Below are positions 1,258-60,818 of a stretch of DNA of 64,000 bases, piece after piece. Below the pieces are notes generated by a model that had not been told where the DNA came from, did no database searches, and saw only the letters and a list, made by a program, of their open reading frames with translations. Position 1 is the stretch's first letter. The number at the start of each line of letters is the position of its first letter. The DNA comes from Candidatus Heimdallarchaeota archaeon (lineage in GTDB: Archaea; Asgardarchaeota; Heimdallarchaeia; Heimdallarchaeales; Kariarchaeaceae), in assembly GCA_026702845.1 (NCBI GenBank), contig JADCLS010000006.1, positions 292,838 to 356,837 on the forward strand, given 5' to 3'. A program made the translations under genes and the position numbers.

Positions 1258-1346
1258 ACGATATGGAAATAATCAATTCTAATATTCAGCATTTTGTTAG
1301 GCGAACTTAGATTATTTCAAATAAAACTATCCTCGGTCAATTGCTA

Positions 1347-9268: not shown

Positions 9269-9778
9269 TTGACATTGCATAAAATTACACTCTTAGGTGA
9301 GCCAAAGGTCGGGAAAACAACATTGCGACGATCCTATATGGGAGATAGTCTTAAAACTAATTATATCAAGACTATTGGAATAGATATCTCTGCTAAGCGA
9401 TTAGAGCGTATGGCATTTCAAATCTGGGATATCGCAGGAGAGGCGACAAAAACCAGCATAAAAAGCTATATCAAGGATAGTAGTGCGATAATTTTGGTTT
9501 TTGATGTGATGACCTTGGATACTTTGATTCAGTGTAATAAATGGCTAAATCATGTGAATACATTTCTTAATAAACCTGTACCTGTAGTACTTGTGGGAAA
9601 TAAAATTGATCTGCGAGATGGCACTGAGATCCCTAAGGATGTGATAAAAGAGACATTCAATACTCACATGAGCATATATTCTGAGTTTCAATTCAAGTAT
9701 ATTGAAACCTCAGCCATCAATGGGTTAAGGGTACAAGAAGTATTTGAATGGCTCCAGACAGTATTGGGGGGTAAGTAA
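9269..9778 (+). CDS. Ras/Rab-like small GTPase
   Basis: This 169-residue G-domain protein has P-loop GEPKVGKTT (10-18), switch I Thr35 in KTIGID, G3 DIAGE (54-58), G4 NKID (111-114) and G5 TSA (147-149). It is clearly of the Ras/Rab/Arf superfamily, as common in Asgard archaea. The position of the Ras catalytic glutamine (Q61 in DTAGQ) is Glu here, so intrinsic GTP hydrolysis may differ. There is no C-terminal cysteine for prenylation and no N-terminal extension. The start is TTG 9269; a second TTG at 9275 is possible. Its stop overlaps the ATG of the next gene (TAATG), suggesting that the two products function together. Confidence 0.92.
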   Translation: MTLHKITLLGEPKVGKTTLRRSYMGDSLKTNYIKTIGIDISAKRLERMAFQIWDIAGEATKTSIKSYIKDSSAIILVFDVMTLDTLIQCNKWLNHVNTFLNKPVPVVLVGNKIDLRDGTEIPKDVIKETFNTHMSIYSEFQFKYIETSAINGLRVQEVFEWLQTVLGGK

Positions 9779-12218: not shown

Positions 12219-13310
12219 ATGGTAGATGTACTCCTCATTCTGAATATGGCTTTTGTAGTGATACAAGTAATTTTACTTGCTGTATTTTTTATACAATCAA
12301 AAAAACTAGGACGAAACTCAACGTTATTGATAATCGGATTGGTTTCTGGTATAATTGCCTCAATTTTATCTATTATACCTGAAATGGATTTGTATATTGG
12401 CAGTGGACGGATTACCCTATCCTTACAACTCATGGCCTTTGGATTGGAATATATATTGCTCTACATCCACTTCAATTTTTCAGTCTCTGAGAACTTGAAT
12501 ACGGTGTATATCTCCATGCTATCATTATTTGCAGGTATATTCACCGTTTATTCAATAAAATTCATGTTAGAACAATTAGAAGATTTTGATGAGCTAATGT
12601 GGGATCTTTCTTATAATTCACTTGGATTCGTGGCATTCTTGTACATCTCCTATGTTATGTTCTCTTCCTATAGGTACTCCAAGGAAAAAGAGGCACTGAT
12701 ACAGGGAGTAGGTACAATGCTACTCGTTATTGGATTTATTGTAGGTGCACTTACAACGCCTATCATTCGTAATGGTCTAGAATTGCAAATTGAACCCTAT
12801 TATGCTGATGTGGTGAAGGCAATTGGTGCTCTGTTATTTATCTCTATTTTTGCATTTAATGCGAACTTTGTCGAGAGAATTGCAGTGGATACCTATGGTA
12901 TCTTAGTATTTGATAATGCAGGTCGTGAGTTAGGATTTTACAATGTCAAGACCAAGAAAAATATCGAGTCCGCTGCCATTCCAGTAGATCCAGCATTATT
13001 CGTACCACTTGTGTCTGCATTACTCAGCTTTGTAAAGGAAGCTCTTGGGACTCAATCATATATGCGGAGTATCAATGGTGTTGATAAAGCAGTAGTATTT
13101 GAGATGGGATCTACTATTCATACAGCCATGATTACTGAGAAGAGCACTCGATTGCTCAATCAATCCATGAAATCATTTCAACATCGATGTGAACAAATTG
13201 TAAATGCACAGATGGAATCAGAATTTAATGTTGGAATTGTTGATGAAGAGGCCATAAAATCTTCTGTTCGTTCGAATTTTCCATATATTGAGGTAATCGA
13301 TACAAATTAA
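12219..13310 (+). CDS. Seven-to-eight-span membrane protein with cytoplasmic longin/roadblock-like domain
   Basis: The protein has 363 residues. Residues 1-220 contain seven to eight hydrophobic spans. Residues 222-363 are soluble and follow a strand-strand-helix-three strands-helix order: YGILVFDNAGRELGFY, then a helix FVPLVSALLSFVKEAL, then MRSINGVDKAVVFEMG and IHTAMITEK, then a long helix. The same order and the closing pattern ITEK..., long helix, are found at the C-terminus of the membrane protein at 50707..51996 and of the giant protein at 37982..46987. The layout fits the roadblock/longin family, whose members often act with small GTPases. The domain name is an inference; no enzymatic motif is visible. 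Confidence 0.75.
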   Translation: MVDVLLILNMAFVVIQVILLAVFFIQSKKLGRNSTLLIIGLVSGIIASILSIIPEMDLYIGSGRITLSLQLMAFGLEYILLYIHFNFSVSENLNTVYISMLSLFAGIFTVYSIKFMLEQLEDFDELMWDLSYNSLGFVAFLYISYVMFSSYRYSKEKEALIQGVGTMLLVIGFIVGALTTPIIRNGLELQIEPYYADVVKAIGALLFISIFAFNANFVERIAVDTYGILVFDNAGRELGFYNVKTKKNIESAAIPVDPALFVPLVSALLSFVKEALGTQSYMRSINGVDKAVVFEMGSTIHTAMITEKSTRLLNQSMKSFQHRCEQIVNAQMESEFNVGIVDEEAIKSSVRSNFPYIEVIDTN

Positions 13311-27037: not shown

Positions 27038-28051
27038 ATGGACAAACTAGATAAGATGGAACAGATGTTTCTTCAGACTCAAAAATCTAAAACTATAGTA
27101 GAGCGAGGAAAAGAACGAATAAAGAAGATAGGTTCCATTTACGATAGTACCAATCAGAGCAAACATGCTATTACGATGGCCACCGCACTGGCCAAAGCAA
27201 TGAAGGCAAAGCTGAAGGTATTTGCAGCCGATGATTTCTACAAGAAAATTGAGGATTCAGTTTCCACAATTAGAAAGAAAGAGACTGAGATGCAGGATTT
27301 CATATCTAATTTTTCACAAGAAGAACAAATTGCTAGTGAATCCGAGCCACTCATGAGCCGAAGGGTTGATCATATATTGAAGTATATGGATGAAGACCTA
27401 CTTGAGGAGGAAAAACTCTCCAGGCTGATTATTAACAAATTGATTAAAGAAGAATTTGATCTTTTCATTGCAGGCTCTCCCCTGTTGCGTACAAGGGAGC
27501 AGGCTGGATATTTTGGATATTACTTACGCAAACTTCTAGGAGATTTCAATATAAAATCAGATTTTCTCCTTGTACCCAATGAAATAGCAGATAAATCGAA
27601 TCGTATGCTAGTTCTTGTCAATTATAAACAAAAACAAGGTTCAATAGAAGCTGTATTGAGAAAGGGAATGGTTTTGAAGGAATGGAGTAAGCATTTGTAT
27701 CTGGTTGGTATTCTAGAAGATAATACTATTGAGACCATAGCCAGATCAGAATTACCTGAGGATGAGACAGATACCAGTCAGAATGTCTCAGAGGTAAGAG
27801 AACGAATAACACATAAGTATAAGGATTTACTCGAATCCTTCAAGTTAGAAGATGAAGAGATGGATCTTGACACCGATATAGTTGTGGGATTAACAACAGC
27901 CAGTGTGAAGAACATCATCGAGGAAATCAAGCCTAAACTAGTGCTCGTGAGAAATGTGAGTAAAGTGGATGAGAATTTGGATCCAGAAGCAGAAAATCTG
28001 GCCAGAATTGCATTGGCAGAAGGCTACCCAGTCTTATTAACCTGGGATTAG
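27038..28051 (+). CDS. Tandem universal-stress-type (USP) domain protein B
   Basis: The product has 337 residues and is a paralogue of the previous gene: IYDSTNQSKHAITMATALAKAM, then FIAGSPLLRT...GYYLRKLLGDF...FLLVPNEIADKSNRM, and a second half with LVLVNYKQKQGS and LVLVRNVSKVDENLD. The shared motifs occur at the same positions, which fits a tandem duplication. The C-terminus ends with GYPVLLTWD, close to the sister's GYPVLVLFD. The permease gene begins 45 bases downstream. The function as regulator of transport is inferred from context. Confidence 0.7.
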   Translation: MDKLDKMEQMFLQTQKSKTIVERGKERIKKIGSIYDSTNQSKHAITMATALAKAMKAKLKVFAADDFYKKIEDSVSTIRKKETEMQDFISNFSQEEQIASESEPLMSRRVDHILKYMDEDLLEEEKLSRLIINKLIKEEFDLFIAGSPLLRTREQAGYFGYYLRKLLGDFNIKSDFLLVPNEIADKSNRMLVLVNYKQKQGSIEAVLRKGMVLKEWSKHLYLVGILEDNTIETIARSELPEDETDTSQNVSEVRERITHKYKDLLESFKLEDEEMDLDTDIVVGLTTASVKNIIEEIKPKLVLVRNVSKVDENLDPEAENLARIALAEGYPVLLTWD

Positions 28052-37326: not shown

Positions 37327-37935
37327 TTATTTCAAGATCTCTAAAATCAGTTGCTCAAATATATTATCTACATTTTGACCAGACTTTGCAGAAGTTTCAA
37401 TGTATGGAAAACTGAACCCATAAGTTTTTTGTAACGATTGTTGATACTCAAGTACTTCTTCAACACTAACTTCACGTTTTTTCTCATCTAGTAAGTCGAT
37501 TTTATTTCCTGTCAAGATTAAAGGAATCATTTTTCCATTATTATTTGAAATTAACTCACGTACCCATAATTGAAGATTGGTGAATGATACTCTTCTAGTA
37601 ACTTCAAAAACTAGCATTGCACCATGAGAGCCTAGATAATAATTTTTCCTGATATTCGAATAGCCTTGATTTCCAGCTAAATCCCAAATTTGCAAGACAT
37701 TATTATCAATTCTTTTAATGCCGAAATCCGCACCCATTGTAACAAGATAACTGGTTTTGAAACCTTTTCCAAAATATCTATTTCTTAAAGATGTTTTTCC
37801 AACTAGTGGATCACCTAATAACAATATTTTGAAAAATTTCTTCTTTTTTGAGGCGTCGTTTGCTTCCTTTTCCTCATTAGTTTTTCCAGTCAAGGTTATT
37901 TTGTAATTATGATGGTTTGATAAAAAGTTTTTCAA
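37327..37935 (-). CDS. Rab/Ras-like small GTPase with N-terminal extension
   Basis: The product is 202 residues. Residues 1-33 are an extension ending in basic KKKKFFK. The G-domain has P-loop GDPLVGKTS (41-49), switch I Thr66 in YLVTMGADF, G3 DLAGN (85-89), G4 NKID (144-147) and G5 TSAKS (181-185). The position of Ras Gln61 is Asn. No prenylation cysteine is present at the C-terminus. The start is TTG 37935, with an AAGGAG Shine-Dalgarno-like sequence just before it. The gene follows the giant receptor gene on the same strand after 46 bases, so cotranscription is likely. It is the probable signalling partner of that protein's cytoplasmic domain, by context. Confidence 0.9.
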   Translation of the reverse strand: MKNFLSNHHNYKITLTGKTNEEKEANDASKKKKFFKILLLGDPLVGKTSLRNRYFGKGFKTSYLVTMGADFGIKRIDNNVLQIWDLAGNQGYSNIRKNYYLGSHGAMLVFEVTRRVSFTNLQLWVRELISNNNGKMIPLILTGNKIDLLDEKKREVSVEEVLEYQQSLQKTYGFSFPYIETSAKSGQNVDNIFEQLILEILK

Positions 37936-37981
37936 CTCAGCTCCTTATTTGACCATGTTTATCAGTAAAATTTGTTTAAAT

Positions 37982-40900
37982 TTATTCAGTTGAAATACCA
38001 TCAAAGTGATACATAACTAGGATGAGCATAGCGATCATATCGGCTTTTAATCCCAATTCTCTCAAATATGTTTCAACACTTTGTAAATTGGTTGTTTCAG
38101 GATATAAATGAGGGTAATTTCTGAAAAGATCCAAGTTCTGTCTAAGCATTCTTGATAATGACTTGATATTTTGGATCCGTCTAATATTTTGAGGTTTCAC
38201 TGTCAAATCCTTTAGTAAATCAACTTTGAATCTCGACTTATTGAATATTGGATAAATCTGATTTTCACTAAGTTCATCAAAACCATGATCTCCATCGGTG
38301 AATACATTACCATATTCATCAATTAGTCTCGAATGGGATTCTGCAATCTGGTTAAGAACTGTATTTGAAAGTTTTCGTTCTGATATTACAATGATTTTGG
38401 ACAAATCACTTGAATGTGAAGTTAAAGAGATAGTCTCACGTTCAAGGAATTCAAATCCCTCAACCACATTATTATCAAATTCTGAAAGAAAAGCGGTTAA
38501 TGCTGATGACATTCCTGATATGAGTAAAGAGTCTAAAGTAACGCTATTTTTCAGCCTTTTCTCAAACAATGGAAGGCCACTGGTTGTTTGAATTATAATC
38601 ATTGAAATTGCTTTAATGGAATCAATCTCTGCTTTTGCATCTGTTAATTCCTTGAGTATCTTTGCATTTTTCTTTCTCATCTCTGCTTTTAAGTACAGGT
38701 TAGCAATGATTATGCTTGTAATTATAATAATACCTATGATAATAAAATAGGCATTGTTTTGAATAAAATTGTTGAATATCTGTGTGAAGTTAAGATCTGG
38801 AGGAACAACATCTGGGAAGTCCTTCTCATCTAACCTACTGGTTATTACATTAAAGTTAGAATCATCAACTGATGCTGATATTCCAGTTATCTTATCAATA
38901 TTAGCTGTTATCTCAGGGCCTAGTGTTATTGATGCAAACCCATCAATCGCAGTTGCAGAATACGCTGATGTTCCATTTTCTCCATTGATACGGATGAAAT
39001 TAATTTCAAATTTAACAACTATATTGCTCACAAACCCAGTTCTTGAGACTATCTCATCAAGGCTGAGTGAGGTTGTACCAGGGTTATCATATGTGACTCT
39101 TGCAGTAATGGTAAATGCTTCACCCTGTACCAAATCACCTGAGATTTCAATGGTTAATTTTATGTTATGTGGGTTGATTCTTATTGGTATGAGATCTTCT
39201 TGTCCGTAATAATTCTCTTTAGTAAATATAAAATGCCACTGATAGTCACCGGGCTCGTAATCTGTATAATTGAGGATGAGAATGAATTCACCTTGTAGAT
39301 TTGTATTTAGAGGCCAACTTTCAAGAATAAGATTTCCTTGTTTGAACTCTACCAAAATCGAACCATTTGCAACTCCTGTACCATTGACATCAGACCAAAT
39401 TCCCGTGAAGTATTCCACATCTCCTTCGTATACTACTTCAACAATATTGATAGAAGGAGCGAGTGTTTCTACTTTTATAGGATGTCGAATTTTTATCAAA
39501 ACACTACTTATCAGTGAATTAGCAGAATCATCCAAAATACGTATGGTAATATTGTACTTTTCAGGTCTAGCAGTTAAACTATCAAGGATGAATGTTATAG
39601 GTATATCATTGCTCCAAGCTCCCTTACTTCTCTCTATTCCATCAACAGTTATAAAGTAATTATTTGGGTGGTTGTCATAAAATAGCCAAGAAATCTCATT
39701 TGAAGTGCCTGTTAATACAAATTCGGTTACTTCTGGAGCTGATTTAAGTTCAGGTAGAATATCATCTAGGACGTTCAAAATAAACCAATGATGAATTGCA
39801 TTATTGGAAGCATCAAGAATACTGATACTAATATTATACTCACCTTGTAATAGAGATCCTATAATTAAGCTAATACTTGAATTACTCTGCCATCCATCTT
39901 GAATTATTTCATTATTAAAACTGATCTCGTATTGACCCGGGTAATTATCAGTCGCTGTCCAATTAATGCTTAGTAAGTTTTTACTTTCTAAGTAATCTTG
40001 ATTTTGTGGAGCTAAAACTAATATTGGTACCGTAGTATCGATAACAGTGATATGGACTTCATCACTTATTGAATTCATAGAATCATCGTAGAACACAATG
40101 CTCAAATTATATACACCTTTGAGAAGAGAATCAATATTCATTTGAATGATCTCTCCACTCATCCATTCTCCACTGCTAATATTCTCATCATTGAGTATAA
40201 TTTGGTAATATGAGGGGTAATTTTCAAATAATATCCATTCCAAATCAATCCCTATGTCTCCTTCTGAAAATTCGATGTTTTCCAGGGGTTGAAAACTCAG
40301 ATTAGGTTTGGTTGTATCAATAATTATTACAGTCACATCAATATGATTCTCATTACCAGAATCATCATAGATATACAAGGTATAGATTATAATACCTTTG
40401 AGTAATATTTCAGTAATGGTATATGAAACTATGTAATTTGGATTGCTATTATTACCTTGTTCAATGATACTTTGATTCTTATATAGGATCCAATGTTGGT
40501 TATGCAGGTCATCTATCCCCCAGGCTAAAACAATTCCCACAGTACCCTCTGAAATTACTCTATCTTGTGCTGTCTGGGTGAAAACTGGCGATTGATTGTC
40601 AATAATTTCCAATTCAATACTGTGCATATTCCAATTGTTGGACCCATCCCTAATAAGGACACTAATGTTATAGATACCTCTAACTAAAACTGATGGATCA
40701 AAGGATATATAGCCCAGATTCTGCCACTCCCCTTGTTCATTGAGGACATCATTGATACGAATTTCAAAAGATGCTGCATGTGCATCTTGTACCTGCCATT
40801 GAAGTATTTCAGTCTCTCCTTCAATTTGATTGCCACTTAGAGGACTACTAATAAAGCCAGGAATTATGTCATCAAATACATATATAAAGACTGAATGCCT

Positions 40901-43900
40901 CAACACATTAAATGATTCATCATTAAACAGAATAGTGATATTCCAAGTACCTAAACCAAGACCAGAAATCGTATAATTCACAAATACATCACTATTCCAT
41001 AGATCTTCAACCATTAATGAATCATTAACAAACAGTTGATATATGCCAGGATATAATTCTGAAGCCTTCCATTGTAGAATATAGGGATCAAAAAATTCAG
41101 CTATTTGTATATTATCTGGACTATAACCAAGTACTGGAGCTGTTATCTCCCTGACATCAATCATATACTCCAATTTGATCTGATTATTGGATTGATCTAA
41201 CACAATAATAGTAAAATTATAATTTCCATAAATGAGTAGGGTAATGTTGTACTGTATACTATCAGACCAAATATTCTGAGCTACAATACTTCCATTCTGA
41301 TACAGAGTATATTCATCAGGATGTAGATCACTAAATCTCCAATTAAGTAACCTCTCTCCAGTGTTTTCCACAAAGGTGATTATATCATCAGGAACATCAA
41401 CAATGCTGGGTGCGGTAGTATCAATATACTCAATGATAACCACATGTTTTGCACGATTCTTTGATACATCCTCCACAACCAAGGTGAAGTTATATACTCC
41501 CATTAGATAACCATCTATACTCTGGGAGATATTTACTTTAGTCTCCCAATCTCCAAATTGTAGTACTTGTATAGTCCCGTTCAGGTAATTGAGATAAATC
41601 GTAAAATTGGAAGCATAGGTATCTGTTACATTCCATTGTAAACTATGTCCGGTGGTGCCCTCAATAAGCACTTGTGATGATGTTGGACCTACTATAATCG
41701 GTTGGGTGGTATCATATACATCTAAATAAAATTGATCCATAATTGCATTGAATGCCGTATCCATGATGACGATGCAGATATTGTACGTTCCCTTTAGAAA
41801 AGTATCCAATACTAGTTTGATGGATTCTGCATTTGTCCATACATCTGTCTGCCAAACCTCACTGTTAACAAATATTGTATAATTGAATGCATACGTATCT
41901 GTACTATTCCAATATAAAGTGAGACTTTGTCCCTCTATGAATTCTCTCTCAGAGGGAGTGAAAATCCAGATAGGAATGTCTGTAATTGTCACCCAAATGG
42001 TATTATTAACCCAATTGAGGGACGTATCAAAAATCACAATAGTGAAATTATATCTCCCCTCTTGTAATTCAGAGATATTATATTGTATCAATTGTGAATC
42101 CTCCCAGTAATTTGAAATTACTTGGGAAGAATTTTGGTAAATGATATAGTAATCGTAATGAATATCTGAAGCAGTCCAATTCAGTAGAAGAATGCCTGTG
42201 TTTTCAACAAAATGTATCTCCTCATCAGGTGAGTCTATAATTACTGGATCTGTTACATCAATTACATCAACAAAAACGGTATGATTATTGCGATTTCCTG
42301 ATTCATCTAAAATGATTAAGGTAAAATTGTACAATCCTTTGGGAAAATTATCAATGTTCACACTGATATTATCAGCATTATTCCATTTATCAAAATCAAA
42401 TTCAATTATAGAACCATTAAGAAAATCAAGGTATATTGTGTAGTTCGACGGATAAAGATCAGTTGTGTTCCATGTAAGATAATTATTAGATGAACCCTCA
42501 AAAATTGTGATATTATTTGGTCCAGAGTCAAAGTTTGGTAAGGTTAGGTCAATTACAGTTAACCAGAACCAATCTCCGATGGAATTGCTTGAGTTATCCT
42601 GAAGAACAATACTGATATTATAGATTCCCTTTGCAAACGAATCAAGAACCAAGTCGATATACTCTGCAGAATTCCAGTCACCAGAAATATAAAATGCTGC
42701 ATCTACATAAATGGTATAATTATCAGGGAAGGAATCACTTGCATTCCAATAAAGTGTCTCGCTGTTTCCTTCAGTAAATATATAATCATCTAGTTCTATA
42801 TCCCATACTGGAATATCGGTGACAATTAATCTAACTTGATGTACCAATTGATTATTTGATTGATCACAGATGATGATAGTATAGTTGTACCAGCCCTCCA
42901 CTCGGCCATTTAGTCCTATGGTGATATTCGTTGCATTAGACCAGCTAGCACTAGAATTTAATTCGCCATTGATATAGAGATAATATAAGCCAGGATACAG
43001 ATCTGTACTATTCCATGTAAATACATATCCCTTACTACCTTCAGGAAAACTGATATTCACTGGTTGTTCTACCATAACTGGTTTAGTATTGTCCAAGACA
43101 TCAATAAATACTGTGATAGATTGTGAGTTATTGGAGGCATCAAATAAATAAATGGTGTAATTATAGATGCCTTTGATAAGATTATCAATATCTATGGTTT
43201 CTTTAACACCACTTATCCAAACAGGATCACTACCTAGGGAAGATTGAGCAGTATTATTGATAAATATCCTATAATAATTGGCATAGTTATCTGTTCCCGT
43301 AAATTCAATAGTGTTCCCTTCAGTACCTTCATAATAGCTAGAATCAGTAGGTGAAAGAGTAAATTCTGGATCTGTCTCATCTAAAACGATTACTTCAACA
43401 AAATCAGTATTGTAATTATCATACTTATCAACAATTTTTAATGTAAAATTGTAAGTTCCCTTCAATAAGCCATCTATGTTGATGGTGATATAATCGGAAT
43501 TATTCCAATTTCCAATCTTAAATTCCTCTCCGTCTAAATAGAGGATATAGTAATCCGGAAATTGATCAGTTGCATTCCATGATAGTGTATAACCTGTATT
43601 ACCTTCAATATAGTCTGTGATATCATTTGGAATATCATCCCAAGATGGAATATCAGTTACTATCACAAACATTGTACTATAGATTGTATTACCATTGGTA
43701 TCATTGACAAGGATGGTGAAATTGTAAATTCCAAGATCTAGTCCGTTGACATCAATTGCAATATTCAACCCATTAGACCATGAACCACTTTGAACCTGAG
43801 TTTCTATCTCATCACCTGTTTCATTCGTTCTGAAAATTATATATTTATCCGGATTTGAATCAGAAGCAACCCAGATGATATCATCAATTGATGTATCAAT

Positions 43901-46900
43901 GAGGTATGTTGCATTTCCAGGAGATGTAGTAAACACAGGATAATCACCAACAATAACAGTAACTTGATCTTCAAAGACATTTCCAGATGTATCTGATACT
44001 TGAATTGTGAAATTATATTCACCAACTGATAACCCATCTATTGAAATGGTAATGATTTGGATTAAACCATTCCAATCACCACTGACGATAGTTACATCAT
44101 TTCTTTTTATTAAATAACTCGATGGGTTTGTATCATTTGCTTGCCATGACAAAGTATGGCCATTAGTACCCACTGAATAGGAAATATCAGCTGGTTGACT
44201 TATGAAATTTGGAACAGTAGTATCAACAATCTCTATGATAATAACTGATTTGTTAGAATTTTGTGATGTGTCTGAAAATACTATAGTGTAATTGTAAGAA
44301 CCTAATTTTAATGTTGCTAGGGATATTTCAATTGTACTAGAAGAAGTCCAAAAATTAGATGATAAAAATGCCCCATTTTTATAAATAACATATGTAAATG
44401 GATTCCTGTCATAAGCCTTCCATGTAAGAGATGTGCTGCTTCCTTGCTCAACATCAGTATTATTAACTGAGGTAGGTTGCAGTGTTAGAGTTGGGATAAT
44501 TGAATCTTCAACTGAGAATTGAATATAGCTAATTTGGTAATTTAGTGATTGATCCCAGACTATAATGGTATAATTGAATATACCAATATCCAAACCGTCT
44601 ATTGAAATCTGAATATTCCCACCAGAAGACCATATCTGTGTTGTAATAGACACATTATTTCTATAGATTGAATAAAGGTAGGGTAAGAGATCTGTTGATA
44701 CCCATACCAGTGTGTGTCCTGTGGATCCTTCCTCAAGAATTGTATTATTATATGCTATGGGTTCAGTAGTGAATACTGGGATTAGTGAATCAACAATTGA
44801 AAAAAGGATTGTACTTGTAACGTAATTATTTGATTTATCCTTGATCAGTAATGTATAATTATAGGATCCTGTTGACAATCCGTCTATGGAAATTTGAATG
44901 GGTCCATTGGAGATCCAAATCTGGGAGCTGATAACCACATTATTTTTGTATATATAGTAGATATTGGGATTGTTATCTGTAGCATTCCAAATTAGCATAT
45001 TGCCAGTATCTCCAAACTCTATACTGGTTTCATTATAGCTCAAGGGTTGTGTGATCAATATAGGCGCGATAGTATCTTTAATTTGAAAGGTTACATAATT
45101 TATCACATAATTGAAGGAATCATCCCAAATGATTATCGTATAATTATATACACCGATATCTAAATCACTAATGGAAATTATGATGTTTCCGCCCGAGGTC
45201 CATAGCTGAGTTGATACCTCCACCTCATTTTTGTATATTGTGTAAAGATAGGGGTTAAGATCAGTAGCCACCCAAACAAGAGTACCAGATGTTCCCTCCT
45301 CAATAATAGTTCCATTGATCAAGGTGGGAGATGATGTTATTACAGGTTGGGTTGTATCTTCAACTGTGATAATTGAGGTTACTTTTAATATATTACCTGA
45401 CTCATCAATAAATAAAATCGTGTAATTATAGATACCAACTCTCTCATCAGCATTATACTGGATTCTCGATCCTGAAACCCAGATACTATCAACCTTTAAT
45501 GATCCATTTCGATAAATTTGGTAATTTACAGGATGTTTATCCGATGCATTCCAAGTTAGAGTATTTCCAGTTTGACCATCTTCATAGGTTAAATTTCCTG
45601 ATCCTGAATTTAATACGGGTATTTTAGTATCAAGAACTATCAGATAGATAGTAGTAGAATTAAAATTACCTACTGTATCATATAGAACTAGGGTATAATT
45701 GTATTCTCCAGGTAGTAAACCATCCACATTGATTGTGATATTCTCTAAGCTAATCCAAGCACTGGTATTTACTAAAACACTATCTAGATAAAGCTTATAA
45801 TAATCAGGATTGCTATCATTCCCCATAAATGTGAGATAATTGCCAGTAGAATCTTCCTCGTAGGTTTGGTTGGAAAAATAATTTACGCTTGGGGGGATAG
45901 GTTCTGTTATCGTTATCCAGACATCATGACTTACTGTATTTAATGATGTATCAAATGCAATGATGGTAAATTTGTATACTCCCAGCGTTAAACTCGAATT
46001 GACAGTTTCTGTAACATTCTCATAATTTATCCACGTTCCTGAATTTATCAAGACATCATCTTGATAGATTTCATAAGTATTAGCAAGGAGGTCACTTACA
46101 TTCCATGCTAGTATAATATCAATTGAATCAGCATAACAAGTAATATCTGAAGGTGATGAGACAAGTGTTGGTGCTGTAGTATCCTGTACGGTGACCTGGA
46201 CGGTATCACTTTCTAATTCGCCATCAGTTCCATTCACATCTACCCGATATGTGTGTTGTCCCAGCGTTAAACTACCTGTAGTAATCGTGATATTATTTGC
46301 AGTAGTCCAAACCCCGCTTTGAATGGAGACAGAATCAAGGAATATCTCATACTTATCTGGTAGAATGTAACTGGTATTCCAATCAATGGCTGTTGTTGAT
46401 CCGTATTCTAGAATGATATCTGCAGGTCTGTAAACAAATTCAATCCCCTCATAAAAGGTAATATAAACGGTGTCTACTGCAAATTCAAGGTCATTGTCCC
46501 ACACAAATAGCGTAAAATTGTACACTCCTGTAGAATATCCAGATAGAACCAAATCCACAGGTTGATTGTTCAAAGGAGATAGATTCTCATAGATCATTGA
46601 TCCATTTACATACACTGTAATATTTTTAGGATTATTATCTGTGATAAACCATGAAATTGTAGGATCAGCATTATAAATACTGAACTGCTGGTCACCTGGA
46701 GATGTTGCAACTACCGGGGGCTTAATATCCAATAAAATAGCGTTTTTTAATGGAGGATTCGATTGAACGACCCTTATTTCATCATTTATTGGCTGGTTGA
46801 TCTGTGTATTCGTTGAATATCTTATTTTTGCAGTCTCAACCTTTATCTCTTGTATTTCTAATGGTTTCTCATCTTGTTTGTTATCTAATAAAGGTAAATA

Positions 46901-46987
46901 TGGATTAGAGAGAAAAATCAAGATAAGTAATAATACGTATATTTTACACCCCTTATTTCCTCCATCGGGTATACAATTTATACGCAT
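37982..46987 (-). CDS. Giant single-pass membrane protein with 26 Ig/cadherin-like repeats and cytoplasmic longin-like domain
   Basis: The product is about 3001 residues from ATG 46987. A GTG six codons upstream is in frame, but a TATA-like TTTAAATA near 47009-47017 fits the ATG. An N-terminal hydrophobic segment (IYVLLLILIFL) acts as signal peptide. It is followed by 26 repeats of about 93 residues, two further beta domains, one membrane span near residue 2750 (AYFIIIGIIIITSIIIANLYL) and a cytoplasmic part of about 230 residues. The repeat motif is YxIYxNxxxxxxxxW...G.YN.T...D.S.N.....V.V.D...P, with many N-glycosylation sequons. The cytoplasmic part, with a strand SMIIIQTTSGLPLF, a helix LISGMSSALTAFLSEF and strands ending in IIVISERK, resembles a longin/roadblock domain. 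The next gene encodes a small GTPase. It is probably an adhesin or surface receptor. Confidence 0.9.
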   Translation of the reverse strand: MRINCIPDGGNKGCKIYVLLLILIFLSNPYLPLLDNKQDEKPLEIQEIKVETAKIRYSTNTQINQPINDEIRVVQSNPPLKNAILLDIKPPVVATSPGDQQFSIYNADPTISWFITDNNPKNITVYVNGSMIYENLSPLNNQPVDLVLSGYSTGVYNFTLFVWDNDLEFAVDTVYITFYEGIEFVYRPADIILEYGSTTAIDWNTSYILPDKYEIFLDSVSIQSGVWTTANNITITTGSLTLGQHTYRVDVNGTDGELESDTVQVTVQDTTAPTLVSSPSDITCYADSIDIILAWNVSDLLANTYEIYQDDVLINSGTWINYENVTETVNSSLTLGVYKFTIIAFDTSLNTVSHDVWITITEPIPPSVNYFSNQTYEEDSTGNYLTFMGNDSNPDYYKLYLDSVLVNTSAWISLENITINVDGLLPGEYNYTLVLYDTVGNFNSTTIYLIVLDTKIPVLNSGSGNLTYEDGQTGNTLTWNASDKHPVNYQIYRNGSLKVDSIWVSGSRIQYNADERVGIYNYTILFIDESGNILKVTSIITVEDTTQPVITSSPTLINGTIIEEGTSGTLVWVATDLNPYLYTIYKNEVEVSTQLWTSGGNIIISISDLDIGVYNYTIIIWDDSFNYVINYVTFQIKDTIAPILITQPLSYNETSIEFGDTGNMLIWNATDNNPNIYYIYKNNVVISSQIWISNGPIQISIDGLSTGSYNYTLLIKDKSNNYVTSTILFSIVDSLIPVFTTEPIAYNNTILEEGSTGHTLVWVSTDLLPYLYSIYRNNVSITTQIWSSGGNIQISIDGLDIGIFNYTIIVWDQSLNYQISYIQFSVEDSIIPTLTLQPTSVNNTDVEQGSSTSLTWKAYDRNPFTYVIYKNGAFLSSNFWTSSSTIEISLATLKLGSYNYTIVFSDTSQNSNKSVIIIEIVDTTVPNFISQPADISYSVGTNGHTLSWQANDTNPSSYLIKRNDVTIVSGDWNGLIQIITISIDGLSVGEYNFTIQVSDTSGNVFEDQVTVIVGDYPVFTTSPGNATYLIDTSIDDIIWVASDSNPDKYIIFRTNETGDEIETQVQSGSWSNGLNIAIDVNGLDLGIYNFTILVNDTNGNTIYSTMFVIVTDIPSWDDIPNDITDYIEGNTGYTLSWNATDQFPDYYILYLDGEEFKIGNWNNSDYITINIDGLLKGTYNFTLKIVDKYDNYNTDFVEVIVLDETDPEFTLSPTDSSYYEGTEGNTIEFTGTDNYANYYRIFINNTAQSSLGSDPVWISGVKETIDIDNLIKGIYNYTIYLFDASNNSQSITVFIDVLDNTKPVMVEQPVNISFPEGSKGYVFTWNSTDLYPGLYYLYINGELNSSASWSNATNITIGLNGRVEGWYNYTIIICDQSNNQLVHQVRLIVTDIPVWDIELDDYIFTEGNSETLYWNASDSFPDNYTIYVDAAFYISGDWNSAEYIDLVLDSFAKGIYNISIVLQDNSSNSIGDWFWLTVIDLTLPNFDSGPNNITIFEGSSNNYLTWNTTDLYPSNYTIYLDFLNGSIIEFDFDKWNNADNISVNIDNFPKGLYNFTLIILDESGNRNNHTVFVDVIDVTDPVIIDSPDEEIHFVENTGILLLNWTASDIHYDYYIIYQNSSQVISNYWEDSQLIQYNISELQEGRYNFTIVIFDTSLNWVNNTIWVTITDIPIWIFTPSEREFIEGQSLTLYWNSTDTYAFNYTIFVNSEVWQTDVWTNAESIKLVLDTFLKGTYNICIVIMDTAFNAIMDQFYLDVYDTTQPIIVGPTSSQVLIEGTTGHSLQWNVTDTYASNFTIYLNYLNGTIQVLQFGDWETKVNISQSIDGYLMGVYNFTLVVEDVSKNRAKHVVIIEYIDTTAPSIVDVPDDIITFVENTGERLLNWRFSDLHPDEYTLYQNGSIVAQNIWSDSIQYNITLLIYGNYNFTIIVLDQSNNQIKLEYMIDVREITAPVLGYSPDNIQIAEFFDPYILQWKASELYPGIYQLFVNDSLMVEDLWNSDVFVNYTISGLGLGTWNITILFNDESFNVLRHSVFIYVFDDIIPGFISSPLSGNQIEGETEILQWQVQDAHAASFEIRINDVLNEQGEWQNLGYISFDPSVLVRGIYNISVLIRDGSNNWNMHSIELEIIDNQSPVFTQTAQDRVISEGTVGIVLAWGIDDLHNQHWILYKNQSIIEQGNNSNPNYIVSYTITEILLKGIIIYTLYIYDDSGNENHIDVTVIIIDTTKPNLSFQPLENIEFSEGDIGIDLEWILFENYPSYYQIILNDENISSGEWMSGEIIQMNIDSLLKGVYNLSIVFYDDSMNSISDEVHITVIDTTVPILVLAPQNQDYLESKNLLSINWTATDNYPGQYEISFNNEIIQDGWQSNSSISLIIGSLLQGEYNISISILDASNNAIHHWFILNVLDDILPELKSAPEVTEFVLTGTSNEISWLFYDNHPNNYFITVDGIERSKGAWSNDIPITFILDSLTARPEKYNITIRILDDSANSLISSVLIKIRHPIKVETLAPSINIVEVVYEGDVEYFTGIWSDVNGTGVANGSILVEFKQGNLILESWPLNTNLQGEFILILNYTDYEPGDYQWHFIFTKENYYGQEDLIPIRINPHNIKLTIEISGDLVQGEAFTITARVTYDNPGTTSLSLDEIVSRTGFVSNIVVKFEINFIRINGENGTSAYSATAIDGFASITLGPEITANIDKITGISASVDDSNFNVITSRLDEKDFPDVVPPDLNFTQIFNNFIQNNAYFIIIGIIIITSIIIANLYLKAEMRKKNAKILKELTDAKAEIDSIKAISMIIIQTTSGLPLFEKRLKNSVTLDSLLISGMSSALTAFLSEFDNNVVEGFEFLERETISLTSHSSDLSKIIVISERKLSNTVLNQIAESHSRLIDEYGNVFTDGDHGFDELSENQIYPIFNKSRFKVDLLKDLTVKPQNIRRIQNIKSLSRMLRQNLDLFRNYPHLYPETTNLQSVETYLRELGLKADMIAMLILVMYHFDGISTE
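39480..46730 (-). repeat. Protein-level tandem array of 26 Ig/cadherin-like domains
   Basis: The array covers about 2417 residues within the giant protein. Counting the G-x-Y-N-x-T strand, followed by the D-x-S-x-N turn and the closing V-x-D-x-x-x-P, gives 26 units of roughly 93 residues. The DNA of the units has diverged, so they are not recent copies. The final two domains before the membrane span do not fit the motif. The units are most like Ig-like or cadherin-like extracellular beta-sandwich domains. Confidence 0.8.
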
Positions 46988-47175: not shown

Positions 47176-48441
47176 TTATGCCATCGGAAGAAAAACAGTA
47201 AATACCGTTCCTTTATTTGTCTCTGTCGAGAATTCAATCTTCCCTCCTATCTTTTTCAAAGAGTTAAATATAGTATATAAGCCAATTCCATGCCCTCCAT
47301 TTTTTGATGTGATATAGGGTTTGAAGATATGTTCACGAATGCTTCTTGGTATGCCTGAGCCAAAGTCCTTAACAGAGAGTGTCACATACCCATCTAACAT
47401 TGAAGTTTGAAGTAAGATCTTCGTTTCTTTTTCACTGGCCTCGACAGCATTAACTAACAGGTTCACACATATTTGATCTAGCAAAAATGGAGACACATTT
47501 GCTTTAGCTAGGGATGGTTCTAAATTTAGAATTAATTCTCTATCAACTACTAAAGAATGGTATGAAGCTAGATTCTCATTAATTATGTCATTTATACAGA
47601 TGGAGATTGGAATATCTGATTCTGGTTTGCCAAAATCAAGTAATTGTTGTATAAGCAATTTCGCCTTATCTGTAACAATTGATATTTGTTTTGCATCCTG
47701 TTCAATCTCAGGCTGATCCGAAATATTATGCATAACAAGATCATTATACAAAGAAATTACTGATAATAAATTGTTAAAGTCATGAGCAATATTGATTGCT
47801 CGTTTACCCAAGTTTTCCATTTTAGTATTTTCATCCATTTTCCTAAGAACATTGTTGATTTGAAGAGATAATGCTTCCTCTTCTGCTTGTTTATTACTAA
47901 GATAGTTGATATACAGAAAGTAGATAATAAGTGAAAGAACAACAAATTTCACCATCATCGATTGTAGTGGGTTGGGATGAAAGCCGATTATGTATCCCTT
48001 ACTTTCAACTATATATATTATAAACACGCTAATCAAGGCTAAAAACCCATTAATAATCAACATTCTAAAATCGAAAAATAATTGAGTTAGAATTAAATAG
48101 AGAAATAATAGGTTGAGGTATTCAGATTGCACACCTCCTGAAACAGTCGAACCAACTAATGCAATCAAATAGAAACCATAAATTAGCATCGCATATGCTA
48201 AATCATGTTTCCTTCGATTATTTAATATTTTTGCCAAAATTAAGAAAGTATTCAGAACAATAAATGAGGGAATTGCAATATAATCTTGAGCAATAGCAAT
48301 CCTTAGTGTCACACCAATTGATGTGACAATCATAGCAAAAGTAGTGATTTTACTAAGAAGTATAGATTTTCTTGTTAGGCCTACATCTTCATAAATTGCA
48401 TGCTTAAAGTTTAATCTAGCTGTATCAATAATAGTCTGCAA
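47176..48441 (-). CDS. Membrane sensor histidine kinase
   Basis: The product has 421 residues. Residues 25-180 contain about six spans (MASE-like sensor region). A short coiled coil leads to the H-box NIAHDFNNLLSVIS with His220, then N-box NLLVNAVEA (328-336), G1 DFGSG (359-363), F-box IFKPYITSK and G2 GHGIGL (383-388). The H-box type (AHDFNN) fits HPK4-like kinases, which are rare in archaea and probably bacterially derived. No response regulator gene is in the window. The start is TTG 48441, with a TATA-like TTAATATAA about 26 bases before it. Confidence 0.9.
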   Translation of the reverse strand: MQTIIDTARLNFKHAIYEDVGLTRKSILLSKITTFAMIVTSIGVTLRIAIAQDYIAIPSFIVLNTFLILAKILNNRRKHDLAYAMLIYGFYLIALVGSTVSGGVQSEYLNLLFLYLILTQLFFDFRMLIINGFLALISVFIIYIVESKGYIIGFHPNPLQSMMVKFVVLSLIIYFLYINYLSNKQAEEEALSLQINNVLRKMDENTKMENLGKRAINIAHDFNNLLSVISLYNDLVMHNISDQPEIEQDAKQISIVTDKAKLLIQQLLDFGKPESDIPISICINDIINENLASYHSLVVDRELILNLEPSLAKANVSPFLLDQICVNLLVNAVEASEKETKILLQTSMLDGYVTLSVKDFGSGIPRSIREHIFKPYITSKNGGHGIGLYTIFNSLKKIGGKIEFSTETNKGTVFTVFLPMA

Positions 48442-50443: not shown

Positions 50444-50710
50444 ATGCTTCACCTACGACCGAGGATTGATTATTCAAAGTGTGTCGGTCATGGCAACTGT
50501 ATCAATGTATGCAAGCATAATGTATTACAAAGATACCTTCCTAGTAAGCAGGAATTAGAAAATTTACCATCCAATGTACGTAAGTATTTGGAATTGAATG
50601 GTGGATACAGAACATACGTAAAACATAAGTATGACTGTCGTAATTGTTGGAGTTGTGTATCCGAATGCCCTGAGAAGGCCATTACTCTTATTGAAGATGA
50701 TTTCAATTAA
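50444..50710 (+). CDS. Small ferredoxin with one standard and one His-substituted iron-sulfur motif
   Basis: The product has 88 residues. The second motif is standard: Cys65, Cys68, Cys71 and Cys75 in CRNCWSCVSECP. The first motif has CVGHGNCINVCK with Cys13, His16, Cys19 and Cys23, so the second ligand is His where most ferredoxins have Cys. It therefore probably holds a [3Fe-4S] cluster and a [4Fe-4S] cluster (7Fe type) or a His-ligated cluster. An insert of about 35 residues separates the two motifs. The TATA-like box near 50409-50420 is 30 bases before the ATG. Its stop overlaps by 4 bases the convergent membrane protein gene. Confidence 0.85.
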   Translation: MLHLRPRIDYSKCVGHGNCINVCKHNVLQRYLPSKQELENLPSNVRKYLELNGGYRTYVKHKYDCRNCWSCVSECPEKAITLIEDDFN

Positions 50711-51996
50711 CTATGTCTTAAAAATGGTAATTGTGTTCTAACTAGTTTTGTGGCTGATTCAAAAACAGTTACATTGCCCATGAAATTCTTGATATTATCT
50801 TCAAAATTCTCATAGAATTTCTTGGTGAATGATTCTAGTCCTTGTTCTAGGAAATAGCTATTTTTCTCAGTAATTAGGACAGATACTATCTCATGAACTT
50901 GTGAGAATATTATCTGCCGGTTACGATCAAATTTTATCAACACCACATGACCATCTGCAGAGGCTACTTCTTTCACTAATTGACCGACTGCAAGAATTGC
51001 AGGTGATTGAAGAGCTGCATGCTTTAGATCTGATTCCTGTCGTATCTCATTAATAAAACTAAATAATGTGATCCCTTGATGTGCATGAATGACCAGGAGC
51101 TGATACACATCGAAATTTACGGAGAAGGCAAATTCAGGATGAAGCATATAGGCCAATATCATCACCAGTAATGCCACAGTGAGTAACCAAGTATTATAGA
51201 TCACAATATCAGAACCCTGGAATAAAAGTGGTTTATCCCTAATAGAAGAGGAATATTGTGCTCCAAGTAACCCTAGATTAGTGATTAGAGATGAAAAACC
51301 AACCAAAACAAACATTGAGGCTCTAGCGATATCGGGACTATCTGCATGTTTCAGAGTGCCATACATGATTCTAAACCCAAATAAACTGATCCAAATGATT
51401 ATGATGGAAAAAATACCTAGATAAACCAGAACAACTTTTTCAATTTCAGAAACCAAGGTTTCTATCTGCTTGACTGGAACAGGCTTGAGCACAAGTACTA
51501 AAATTTCCCCAATGACCATTGGTAATGCTGTTCCCAAAATTGCTACCGCATGAACAAGATCCGGGCGTCTCTTCTCAATTAATTCAATATGGAAATATAG
51601 CAGTATTATGGCAACAGGAAACATCAGATCTCCAATAGCAGCTAATGTATTATCTCCTCTGTTGAAAACAGTTCCTTCGGGTTTTGCTATCATGGCGAAT
51701 AATTCAGATACGCCATAAATGAATACAGCACCTGCTAAAAATGCTAAACCCTTAATATCTCTTAAAATTGCTTTATACACAAGTATCCCAAAAAATATCA
51801 CTGATATAATAAATGGAATAAAATGATAGAGAAAAGTTTCATTGATATACTTCATTACTGTTCCTAGAGGTACTGCAAGAAACCAAGTTAGGATAATGGT
51901 TCCAATAGATCCAATAAGAAAAGCAACCAATGTTTTAACCTTTACATCCACTTTGTGGACAAATTCTGTAAATTTTTCTTCTTCTGTCTCACTCAC
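50707..51996 (-). CDS. Polytopic membrane protein with C-terminal longin/roadblock-like domain
   Basis: The product has 429 residues. Residues 20-290 contain seven to eight spans, with EKRRPDLVHAVAILGTALPMVIGE in a loop. Residues 293-429 are soluble and have the same order of strand, helix, strand, strand, helix as the domain at the C-terminus of 12219..13310: VYQLLVIHAHQGITLFSF, then a helix, then HVVLIKFDRNRQIIFS, then VSVLITEKNSYF and a long helix. This is a second polytopic protein with this layout in the window. It starts at GTG 51996, with an AT-rich TATA-like box about 26 bases upstream. No catalytic motif was seen. A role as GTPase-linked sensor is inferred. Confidence 0.75.
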   Translation of the reverse strand: MSETEEEKFTEFVHKVDVKVKTLVAFLIGSIGTIILTWFLAVPLGTVMKYINETFLYHFIPFIISVIFFGILVYKAILRDIKGLAFLAGAVFIYGVSELFAMIAKPEGTVFNRGDNTLAAIGDLMFPVAIILLYFHIELIEKRRPDLVHAVAILGTALPMVIGEILVLVLKPVPVKQIETLVSEIEKVVLVYLGIFSIIIIWISLFGFRIMYGTLKHADSPDIARASMFVLVGFSSLITNLGLLGAQYSSSIRDKPLLFQGSDIVIYNTWLLTVALLVMILAYMLHPEFAFSVNFDVYQLLVIHAHQGITLFSFINEIRQESDLKHAALQSPAILAVGQLVKEVASADGHVVLIKFDRNRQIIFSQVHEIVSVLITEKNSYFLEQGLESFTKKFYENFEDNIKNFMGNVTVFESATKLVRTQLPFLRHS

Positions 51997-54247: not shown

Positions 54248-57200
54248 TTATGCTGTGTTTAATTCCTGAACCATACCTGGATATCCAATGACACCGGTCT
54301 CCTCGAGGCCAGCTACAAGGTTCATCACACTGGTGATAAATTTGTACCCTATGACAATTCCTTGAACTATTCTGTAGGCTATTCGCCAAGGACCTTCTGG
54401 AATGGCCCATCCTGCATTTGCAAAATAATTTGCAATATCATAGATAAGATACACCCATTTATCCACCACTTCAAAGTAGTAGGCTCGATCTCCACTATCT
54501 AAATCACGTGCATTAAGCACACTTTCATGGATAGCTGCTGTCCATATCGCATCAGCCAAATCAAGGAACCAACCAAATCCCATAAAGAAATACTCTACAG
54601 GTGCAGCATCACCATCTTCCTTGACATAAAACCAGGCAAGAAGATTCTGAGCAACAAGAGCCACTCCTTTGGTGATCTGGATCACTAATGCTTTGGTGTA
54701 ACTAGTTGACACAGCATCTAGTTTTTCCATTCGTATCTCTATTGGTCCCATTATCGCCCAGAAAATGAGGTCTACAGCAGCTCCTTGACGTAATCCTTTT
54801 TTGTCAGGATCTCCTCCTCCTCCCTCACGTTCTTTACCATCAATAGCATTGGTAATCTCATTATAGGCAAGTTCAACCACCTCAAAAACAAAGAGAGTAA
54901 TAGCTAAATTGGATGGTTCATCATAGGCATCTACTGTATGCTCATCCAGCTGCATACCCAGCTTCTTGGCATCGGAAAAACTATCTAGGGTTAATTCTGG
55001 CATGAAGATACTATCCACAAATTGGAATATATCCGCAATTATGTATCCAATTCTTACTGCTGGTTTGAACATGGCAACCATTAGATCATTCAACGAGGTT
55101 GCCCTACTAGGATCATCCCTCATGAATGCATCAGCAATTCTTAACATATTACTGGTTGAGATGCCACTGAGGAGGGTATTCATTTCACTGGGGAACTCTC
55201 GTACCCCATTGTATATATCAAACACCATATTCAACCAACTGTCATCATCGTCAGTAATCTCTCCTGCAACCTCCAGTGGATCATTCCAATCGAGATTATC
55301 TGTTTCATCAGGTCCTGAACCGATAAGATCTTGTATCTGATCAACAACAGAATTCAAATATCCATTAAATATTGAATCCACAAGGTTCATCATGAAATCA
55401 GTGACTACCTGTTGCAATATCTCCATAGCTTTCTCCGCAAGATATTCCACAGCAAGTTCTAATATTGATCCCTGAAACACCGCAAGGATAATATCTGCTG
55501 TTCCACCATGCCCATAGAATATATCGTCCTTGGTAAGTGGAGGCATCCACTCATCCATGATATCCTCGAATTGACTCATGGTATCCTGCAGATCTGAAAC
55601 GAAACCATTATTATTGAAATCGTCTATACCATCAGAAATATCAGATCGAACGGATTCATAGCCATTGAACACAGCAGCCATGGCATCAACTGCTGTTTGA
55701 TCGTAATTTCGCTGAAAAGCGTTGATGAAATCACGTATAAATCCCTCCCAAATCTTGTTGAATTGCTCGAGAATCCAGTCCTTGATGCGATTATAGATAT
55801 CTACAACGAAATCTTTCACAGCATCCACTGCTTCTTTGGCTTTCTCTCCAATGTATTCAGCAGCATCCACCGTCCATTCCCAGACCTGTGTGGCAATTTT
55901 CACAATCTCATCCGCTAACTCCTTGATCTCAGTAACAAAGCTATTTAAAAGACCAGAACCCCATTCTGCTAGACCAACTGTACGTTCAAAGATACGGGTG
56001 TTGCCATTTTGATCCTCCACCTCGAAGTGGAAGGTTGAGGATTCCAAACGATTTCCATCCTTACCCAACTCGAAGTATTCATCCATGATATAGGTTCTTG
56101 AATTGATGTTATTAACCGTCTTGAGGTATTTACCATCCTTGTATATTGAGATTCTCTTAATCATGGCATCATCTTCGATTTTCACCTTGATATTGGCCTG
56201 TGGGTTCAGGATTCCGGTCATCTCGGATAACACCTTTCTCACATCCATCTTGATTGAACCACGGATCTTCAATCCATAGGGGATACCATGTGATTTTTTC
56301 AGCTCTATACCAAAGTTATCAAAGCGGATAGTATTCTTGAATAGCTCATTCCATTCATTTAGGTTATCAAACACATCATCGAGATGTTTCTTGGCCCAAT
56401 CCTTGATGGCATCCTTAACAATATTCTTGATAGTTCCCCATGATTTGAGCCTAGGTGTCCAAACACAGAATTTCCACCAACAGGATTTCTTCCAGTACCA
56501 CATCTTCCTGAAAACATTTACCGCAGCCTTAACTGCATCCCAGATACCAGTTAATGCCGTGGATAATGAACGATAGATGACATTGTCAGTGATATCTGGT
56601 TCAACATGATAGGATACTTCAATCTCATCTAGTAAAGTAGGTGGTTCAAAATCACTGATAAGTTTTTGTGGATCAAATAGATCCATGATTCCGTCTCCAT
56701 CAGAGTCAGCCGAGGTAGGGTCACTCATATTGGCTGCATCCCCGCTTATTTCCTCGTAATCTGTCAAACCATCCCCATCTGTGTCCTGACGTAGCGGATC
56801 TGTGGTTACGGTGATATTGTACTGTTCCACCGTAGGTTCTTTGATAGTGGTTCCATCCTCATCATACACTCCTCCTGACATTTTCGTCACCGGAAGTGTG
56901 AAACCTGCCACTTCTATACCATCGGCAAGCCCATCCCAATCTGTATCTGCTCTCATGACATCAGTTCCATATTCATGGATCTCCAACCAGTCATTTAATC
57001 CATCTCGATCTGAATCTGCATTCGTTGGGATACTATGATAGACATATACTTCATCATAATCTGAGACGTTATCATTATCACTGTCAAAACTCATGGGATT
57101 GAGATAATACACCTGCTCATGCTCAGTTCCATTGGTCTCAGTCCAAACAGCCTTGAATTCTAGATTGAGTTCATCCCAATCAGGGATATCATCAAAATCA

Positions 57201-60817: not shown

Positions 60818-60818
60818 C

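What the first reader, a model, noticed from the sequence alone, without database searches (positions are those of the whole stretch)
37327..46987. Giant Ig-repeat receptor in an operon with a Rab/Ras-like GTPase
A protein of about 3001 residues (signal peptide, 26 Ig/cadherin-like domains, one membrane span, cytoplasmic longin/roadblock-like domain) is followed by a small GTPase gene on the same strand after 46 bases. Longin/roadblock-family domains often bind or regulate small GTPases in other systems. The layout suggests an archaeal single-pass receptor that couples surface adhesion or recognition to a small GTPase, a design otherwise thought of as eukaryotic. The gene order, spans and repeats are seen; the signalling role is inferred.
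Basis: partly seen in the sequence, partly recalled or inferred. Interest (0 to 1): 0.88.

Follow-up and report, generated by a model that had tools for sequence, protein, structure and literature searches.

The report
Giant archaeal surface protein beside GTPase
A probable Asgard archaeon carries a very long, probably sugar-coated surface protein with 26 similar domains and one membrane anchor, next to a gene for a Rab-like molecular switch; whether the two work together as a receptor pathway is plausible but unproven.

Summary
The layout is real. On the minus strand a 3001-codon gene (ATG 46987, stop 37982) has an N-terminal hydrophobic segment, 26 tandem Ig-like domains (91-2508), one membrane span (2748-2766) and a 235-residue charged tail. 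After 46 bases comes a Rab/Ras-like GTPase (37327-37935; Pfam Ras 3.6e-39) with a Shine-Dalgarno-like motif before its TTG. The ectodomain is rich in N-x-S/T sequons (94; shuffles 44.3 +/- 5.8), and 22 of 26 repeats carry one at the same position, so it is very probably a glycosylated surface stalk.

The key claim, a longin/roadblock tail that regulates this GTPase, is not established. The tail matched no such family, found only itself in a word-seeded search of 5.8 billion proteins, and both AlphaFold2 jobs gave unusable models (pLDDT 34 and 40). The only support is a strand-helix order read by eye and a weak, boundary-dependent similarity to the C-terminal domains of two multi-span membrane proteins in the window; neither adjoins a GTPase. 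A second GTPase in the window shows that such genes are not rare here. Conservation of the pair could not be tested: no genome is held and no cellular relative locus was found. I give functional coupling about 0.4.

The parts
37982..46987 (-). Gene for the 3001-residue giant surface protein (ATG 46987; stop 37982-37984)
   Evidence: the word-seeded protein search found only this copy, on a 356,837-base contig
46886..46942 (-). N-terminal hydrophobic segment (residues 16-34), probable signal peptide
   Evidence: hydropathy peak (22-40 in 3007-residue numbering); no signal-peptide program was run
39464..46717 (-). 26 tandem Ig-like (PKD/FN3-type) repeats of about 94 residues, residues 91-2508
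   Evidence: profile hits, unit list and alignment (mean pairwise identity 29%), Pfam K319L-like_PKD
38753..39463 (-). Membrane-proximal stretch outside the repeat family (residues 2509-2745), probably beta domains
   Evidence: read from the sequence; the best stretches of the Pfam matches lie elsewhere; inference
38690..38746 (-). Single membrane span (residues 2748-2766)
   Evidence: hydropathy 2.66, the highest 19-residue mean printed; followed by KAEMRKKNAK, positive inside
37985..38689 (-). Cytoplasmic tail, residues 2767-3001
   Evidence: 1 sequon in 235 residues against 94 in 2705 of the ectodomain; 29 K+R and 32 D+E
38300..38626 (-). Candidate alpha/beta domain of the tail (residues 2788-2896), longin/roadblock-like by pattern only
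   Evidence: weak similarity to two other window domains; AlphaFold2 pLDDT 40, so fold undetermined
37327..37935 (-). Rab/Ras-like small GTPase, 202 residues from TTG; Asn in place of the catalytic Gln; no C-terminal Cys
   Evidence: Pfam Ras 3.6e-39; best PDB match Thorarchaeota Rab 7ezb 5.5e-31; residues
37941..37946 (-). AAGGAG, Shine-Dalgarno-like motif 5 bases before the GTPase TTG
   Evidence: an SD-like motif stands before 11 of 45 hand-picked genes of the window
50707..51996 (-). Multi-span membrane protein with a C-terminal soluble domain possibly of the tail type (compared stretch 50803-51108)
   Evidence: no Pfam match
12219..13310 (+). Second membrane protein homologous to 50707-51996, same C-terminal domain (compared stretch 12891-13202)
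   Evidence: local score 100 against 45.6 +/- 7.0 shuffled, 0 of 500

Best explanation
A Heimdall-type Asgard archaeon makes a very long, N-glycosylated, single-pass surface protein. Twenty-six Ig-like domains form a stalk of roughly 100 nm (26 x about 4 nm, recalled size) for adhesion or recognition. A cytoplasmic tail of 235 residues, probably a longin/roadblock-type alpha/beta domain followed by helices, binds the Rab-like GTPase made from the next gene, anchoring it under the adhesion site and setting its nucleotide state. The GTPase has no lipid-accepting Cys, so a membrane protein partner would supply its membrane address; its Asn in place of the catalytic Gln suggests slow hydrolysis that depends on a partner. 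Shown: layout, repeats, membrane span, sequons, GTPase identity, Asn and absence of Cys. Inferred: glycosylation, co-transcription, tail fold, binding, direction of signalling.
For: Gene layout and 46-base gap; SD-like AAGGAG before the GTPase, a kind of motif present before 11 of 45 hand-picked genes; 26 repeats; 94 sequons in the ectodomain against 44.3 +/- 5.8 (0 of 1000 shuffles reach it), 22 of 26 repeats with one at the same column, 1 sequon in the tail; GTPase family and nearest named relatives from Heimdallarchaeota; among 63 compared GTPases 0 have a Cys in the last five residues, and the Gln61 position is Asn only in this one; weak similarity of the tail domain to the C-terminal domains of 50707-51996 (1 of 2000 shuffles and 1 of 1423 segments of other window ORFs score as high) and 12219-13310 (19 of 2000; 3 of 1423). 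Roadblock and longin proteins act with small GTPases in other systems (PMC10933270, sections 11 and 13 read; PMC13343842, passages).
Against: No longin or roadblock match in Pfam or NCBIfam at E up to 10 and no PDB support; both structure predictions unusable. The similarity to the two window domains weakens or disappears with other boundaries or methods: 260 of 1000 shuffles (with hhalign probability 0.1), 89 and 29 of 1000 and 66 of 1940; the trimmed segments were chosen after seeing these. Those two proteins have no GTPase neighbour, so 1 of 3 at best. The gap is not in the tightest class, and by eye a TATA-like TTTAAA lies at 37975-37980, 40-45 bases before the GTPase start, so a separate promoter is possible. 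In strain MK-D1 GTPase genes do not generally lie in operons with such regulators (PMC10933270). The pair was not seen in any other genome.
Confidence: 0.4

Rival explanations
1. The giant protein is a surface adhesin or cell-coat stalk whose tail has a structural or scaffolding role, and the GTPase is a neighbour by chance with its own function.
For: GTPases are not rare: at least two among 45 hand-picked genes of this window (seven of the 45 were not scanned with Pfam). With 29 of 44 adjacent pairs on one strand, my arithmetic (29/44 x 2/45) gives about 3% for a GTPase as same-strand neighbour on a given side of a given gene, which is not remarkable for a feature picked out of a whole window. 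Another giant repeat protein (54248-60817, PKD domains) and a TSP3-repeat protein (60819-63806) have no GTPase next to them as far as the window shows.
Against: Same strand, short gap and an SD-like motif fit an internal cistron; the tail is 235 residues long rather than a short anchor.
Confidence: 0.4
2. The tail is a longin/roadblock-type platform, but for other partners (other GTPases of the cell, or dimerisation with other membrane proteins bearing the same domain), not specifically for the neighbouring GTPase.
For: Two further membrane proteins in the window may share the domain without a GTPase neighbour; PMC10933270 says that matching GTPases to regulators from genome layout is difficult in MK-D1.
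Against: The domain assignment itself is unproven; the adjacent GTPase is the simplest partner.
Confidence: 0.15
3. The tail is an unrelated orphan domain (no longin/roadblock fold) and nothing links it to GTPases (overlaps with the first rival).
For: Only itself, or nothing, in two word-seeded searches of 5.8 billion proteins (1652 and 458 candidates scored); best library matches are below their cut-offs: FtsQ_DivIB_C 0.0067, RNase_H_2 0.04.
Against: Strand-helix order by eye and the trimmed-segment similarity.
Confidence: 0.2

Closest known systems
Asgard Rab-like GTPases (for example Thorarchaeota Rab, PDB 7ezb)
   Same: Ras-superfamily core, Pfam Ras 3.6e-39, best PDB match 5.5e-31; no C-terminal Cys (PMC10933270, Discussion)
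   Different: Asn instead of Gln at the catalytic position (1 of 63 compared) and an N-terminal extension of about 33 residues if the first TTG is the start
Conservons (actinobacterial G protein systems CvnA-D)
   Same: A membrane sensor gene, a roadblock protein and a Ras-like GTPase in one operon (PMC13343842, abstract start and passages)
   Different: There the sensor is histidine-kinase-like and the roadblock is a separate protein; here the tail is part of a 26-domain surface protein and its roadblock nature is unproven. The histidine kinase gene 47176-48441 lies upstream of the giant gene but 188 bases away and nothing ties it in
MglA/MglB of Myxococcus
   Same: Ras-like GTPase controlled by MglB in a prokaryote (PMC11016934, listing only)
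   Different: No transmembrane ectodomain in MglB (recalled)
Giant Ig-like repeat adhesins of bacteria (BAP type)
   Same: Tandem 80-110-residue Ig-like modules (PMC4647330, listing only)
   Different: Here one membrane span with a 235-residue cytoplasmic tail, and a sequon at the same place in 22 of 26 repeats

Membership tests
Ras-superfamily (Rab-like) small GTPase | Ras domain with P-loop GxxxxGK[ST], DxxG, NKxD and SAK motifs | tested here: met
   Pfam Ras 134 bits, cut-off 21.6; motifs GDPLVGKT, DLAG, NKID, SAK in alignment A1
Ras-superfamily (Rab-like) small GTPase | Catalytic Gln after DxxG (usual, not universal) | tested here: not met
   Asn in this protein; among 63 compared Gln in 59, His in 2, Glu in 1
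Eukaryotic-type prenylated Rab | C-terminal Cys for geranylgeranylation | tested here: not met
   ends ...LILEILK; 0 of 63 compared have a Cys in the last five residues
Longin / roadblock domain (tail) | Match to a curated longin or roadblock model | tested here: not met
   no such model listed at E up to 10 in Pfam or NCBIfam; HMMER filters drop most weak matches, so remote kinship is not excluded
Longin / roadblock domain (tail) | Five-stranded sheet with flanking helices (core fold as described in PMC10933270, section 11) | tested here: inconclusive
   AlphaFold2 pLDDT 34.4 for 231 residues and 40.4 for 109 residues; fold search not run on such models
Receptor-roadblock-GTPase operon (conservon-like) | Conserved co-location of receptor and GTPase across genomes | tested here: inconclusive
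   no relative of tail or GTPase located in genome contigs with exact-pattern scans; one virus record only for GTPase alignment A1; no genome handle of a relative available
Ig-like surface repeat protein | Tandem beta-sandwich domains outside, membrane anchor, signal peptide | tested here: met
   26 units, Pfam PKD-like match above cut-off, two hydrophobic segments; cleavage of the signal not tested, fold of the repeat not predicted here

The most novel reading that the evidence does not exclude
An archaeal adhesion receptor that passes a contact signal through one membrane span to a longin/roadblock tail, which directly recruits and switches a dedicated, lipid-free Rab-like GTPase made from the same transcript: a pre-eukaryotic outside-in GTPase pathway, with further membrane proteins of the same genome (50707-51996, 12219-13310) using the same kind of cytoplasmic domain.
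Probability: 0.25. Interest if true: 0.87.

Novelty: new variant of a known kind. Interest (0 to 1): 0.48.

Why it matters
Asgard archaea have many small GTPases and roadblock/longin proteins, but PMC10933270 says that the role of their Rab and Rag proteins is unknown and that matching GTPases to regulators from the genome layout is difficult (Discussion). A receptor fused to such a regulator and sitting beside its GTPase would name a testable pair and an input signal, and would place adhesion-to-GTPase coupling before eukaryotes. As it stands the locus is a good candidate pair for an experiment, not evidence of a pathway.

Tried and rejected
Homologues of the tail: protein database with the tail as region of the giant protein (only itself) and alone (none at E 0.01), genome contigs (none), the window's other ORFs, Pfam, NCBIfam, PHROGs, PDB, phage records: chance-level matches only. 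Homologous loci of the GTPase: genome contigs and viral contigs with the single sequence (none), phage records (none at 1e-5); viral contigs with alignment A1 gave one virus record, L002, where the GTPase lies between genes of 204 and 280 residues and no giant gene is in the 19.6 kb held; a roadblock search of that record found 0 of 1. Relatives of 50707-51996 in viral contigs: none. Structure of the tail: two AlphaFold2 jobs, both low confidence, so no fold search was made; the repeat was not folded. Tail against the two other window domains: tests with differing outcome are all given; the match of the tail to 12219-13310 (22 of 500) aligned to its membrane part and was discarded. MAFFT alignments A2 to A7 of these domains disagree with one another in the second half, so no residue-level homology is claimed. 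Sigma-70-type promoter scan: 73 found against 71.4 expected, of no use for an archaeon. Dropped: histidine kinase 47176-48441 as a third member (188-base gap, no link). Eight literature searches: the rows listed (titles and abstract starts, lists capped at 12 to 25) showed no paper on such a receptor-GTPase pair in Asgard archaea; the library holds open-licence papers only, and only PMC10933270 and PMC13343842 were opened.

Full report
What is there. ORF listing and translation confirm a 3001-codon gene on the minus strand (ATG 46987 to stop 37982; GTG 47005 would give 3007) and, 46 bases downstream, a 202-codon gene with a TTG start (37935 to 37327). The database copy of the GTPase starts at a later TTG (188 residues, P0002); the AAGGAG motif 5 bases before the first TTG favours the longer form. 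A profile from six central repeats finds 26 units, residues 108-2502 as matched and 91-2508 when padded. Mean pairwise identity of the aligned units is 29%, range 14 to 61%. Pfam places them with K319L-like_PKD (75.5 bits, cut-off 27) and ChitinaseA_N (46.3 bits, cut-off 21.2), with MtxA_IG-like below its cut-off, that is, Ig-like beta sandwiches; no cadherin model was listed at E up to 0.01. The repeat fold itself was not predicted.

Membrane topology and surface exposure. The two hydrophobic segments are at residues 16-34 and 2748-2766 (converted from 3007-numbering). The ectodomain (2705 residues) holds 94 N-x-S/T sequons against 44.3 +/- 5.8 in 1000 shuffles, none reaching 94; 22 of 26 repeats have one at the same alignment column. 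The tail (235 residues) has 1, with 896 of 1000 shuffles having at least as many. That asymmetry supports an N-glycosylated outside and a cytoplasmic tail; glycosylation itself is inferred.

Host. The nearest GTPases with names are from Candidatus Heimdallarchaeota (P0003, 51% over 84%; P0004 from LC_2, 48% over 93%; P0005) among 593 proteins at E <= 1e-10, of which the best 120 were listed. No genome is held for the window. A Heimdall-type Asgard host is therefore inferred.

The GTPase. It is a Ras-superfamily member (Pfam Ras 3.6e-39), closest among solved structures to Thorarchaeota Rab (7ezb, 5.5e-31; 672 distinct sequences at E <= 1e-10, 60 shown). In a set of 63 (the 60 best-scoring relatives P0003-P0062, the two window GTPases and the viral one), the catalytic Gln position is Gln in 59, His in 2, Asn in this one and Glu in the other window GTPase; 0 of 63 have a Cys in the last five residues. 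The tree places it without close kin (end branch 0.67, nearest row P0003; bootstrap not settled). The meaning of the Gln and of prenylation is general knowledge.

The tail. By eye residues 2788-2896 read strand-strand-helix-strand-strand-strand-helix, the order expected of the roadblock/longin group; this is my reading of the sequence. Tests: no longin or roadblock model in Pfam or NCBIfam; PDB matches at chance level (profile of three domains, none); the protein database gives only itself or nothing. AlphaFold2 gave pLDDT 34.4 (231 residues, single sequence) and 40.4 (109 residues, three rows). The second model is all-helical and the first mixed, so neither can be read. No fold search was made on them.

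A possible wider family. Two multi-span membrane proteins of the window, 50707-51996 (-) and 12219-13310 (+), share a soluble C-terminal domain (local score 73 against 33.9 +/- 5.1 and full-length 100 against 45.6 +/- 7.0, each 0 of 500 shuffles). The tail resembles this domain only weakly: with first boundaries 260 of 1000 shuffles score as high, with others 89 and 29 of 1000, and 66 of the 1940 shuffles that got a score by profile; with trimmed boundaries and a lower gap cost 1 and 19 of 2000 shuffles, and 1 and 3 of 1423 segments of other long ORFs of the window (these ORFs are stop to stop and need not all be genes). Boundaries of the last test were chosen after the earlier ones. I take this as a lead, not as homology shown.

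Does adjacency mean coupling? Of 45 genes that I picked by hand from the 55 listed ORFs, 29 of 44 neighbouring pairs lie on one strand; 9 of 29 gaps are 6 bases or less and 46 belongs to the next class; starts were taken as listed, except that of the giant gene, so gaps and SD counts are approximate. The window has a second Rab-like GTPase at 9269-9778 (Pfam Ras 5.7e-31). Neither of the two membrane proteins above adjoins a GTPase (positions; neighbours). [quoted passage not shown] By eye a TATA-like TTTAAA at 37975-37980 leaves room for a separate promoter. Adjacency here is thus suggestive and no more. The decisive comparison, the same pair in sister genomes, could not be made: genome contigs gave no relative of tail or GTPase in exact-pattern scans and no genome handle of a relative could be had.

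Verdict. It works, if at all, like a conservon (membrane sensor, roadblock, GTPase; PMC13343842, passages) with sensor and regulator fused, but membership in the longin/roadblock group was tested without success and is not claimed.

Noticed in passing
window 1341-1841 (+): Protein matching Pfam UFC1 (ubiquitin-fold modifier-conjugating enzyme 1), 1.1e-9, 38.6 bits over the cut-off of 25; PDB 3kpa at 0.0003 over residues 20-113. From recall of the eukaryotic enzyme, the catalytic Cys seems to be missing.
   Followed up: partly
window 9269-10689 (+): Second Rab-like GTPase (Glu at the catalytic Gln position) overlapping by one base a 303-residue protein with no Pfam match listed at E up to 1 and no PDB match at E up to 10. 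From recall its middle part resembles a DENN domain, a class of Rab activators; no search supports this.
   Followed up: partly
L002:9998-10558 (IMGVR_UViG_3300018428_000205): A virus contig with a prohead protease (Pfam Peptidase_S78, 4.4e-17) carries a Rab-like GTPase (Pfam Ras 9.8e-50), 47% identical to the window GTPase: a possible Asgard virus with a captured GTPase.
   Followed up: partly
window 54248-63806 (-): Two more large surface-type genes end to end, 1 base apart: 2189 residues with PKD domains and 995 residues with TSP3 repeats and, by eye, a C-terminal hydrophobic segment.
   Followed up: no
window 25887-26903 and 27038-28051 (+): Two neighbouring proteins of 338 and 337 residues, similar by eye, without a Pfam match at E 0.001, upstream of a CitMHS-type transporter; they look like a tandem duplication.
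   Followed up: no
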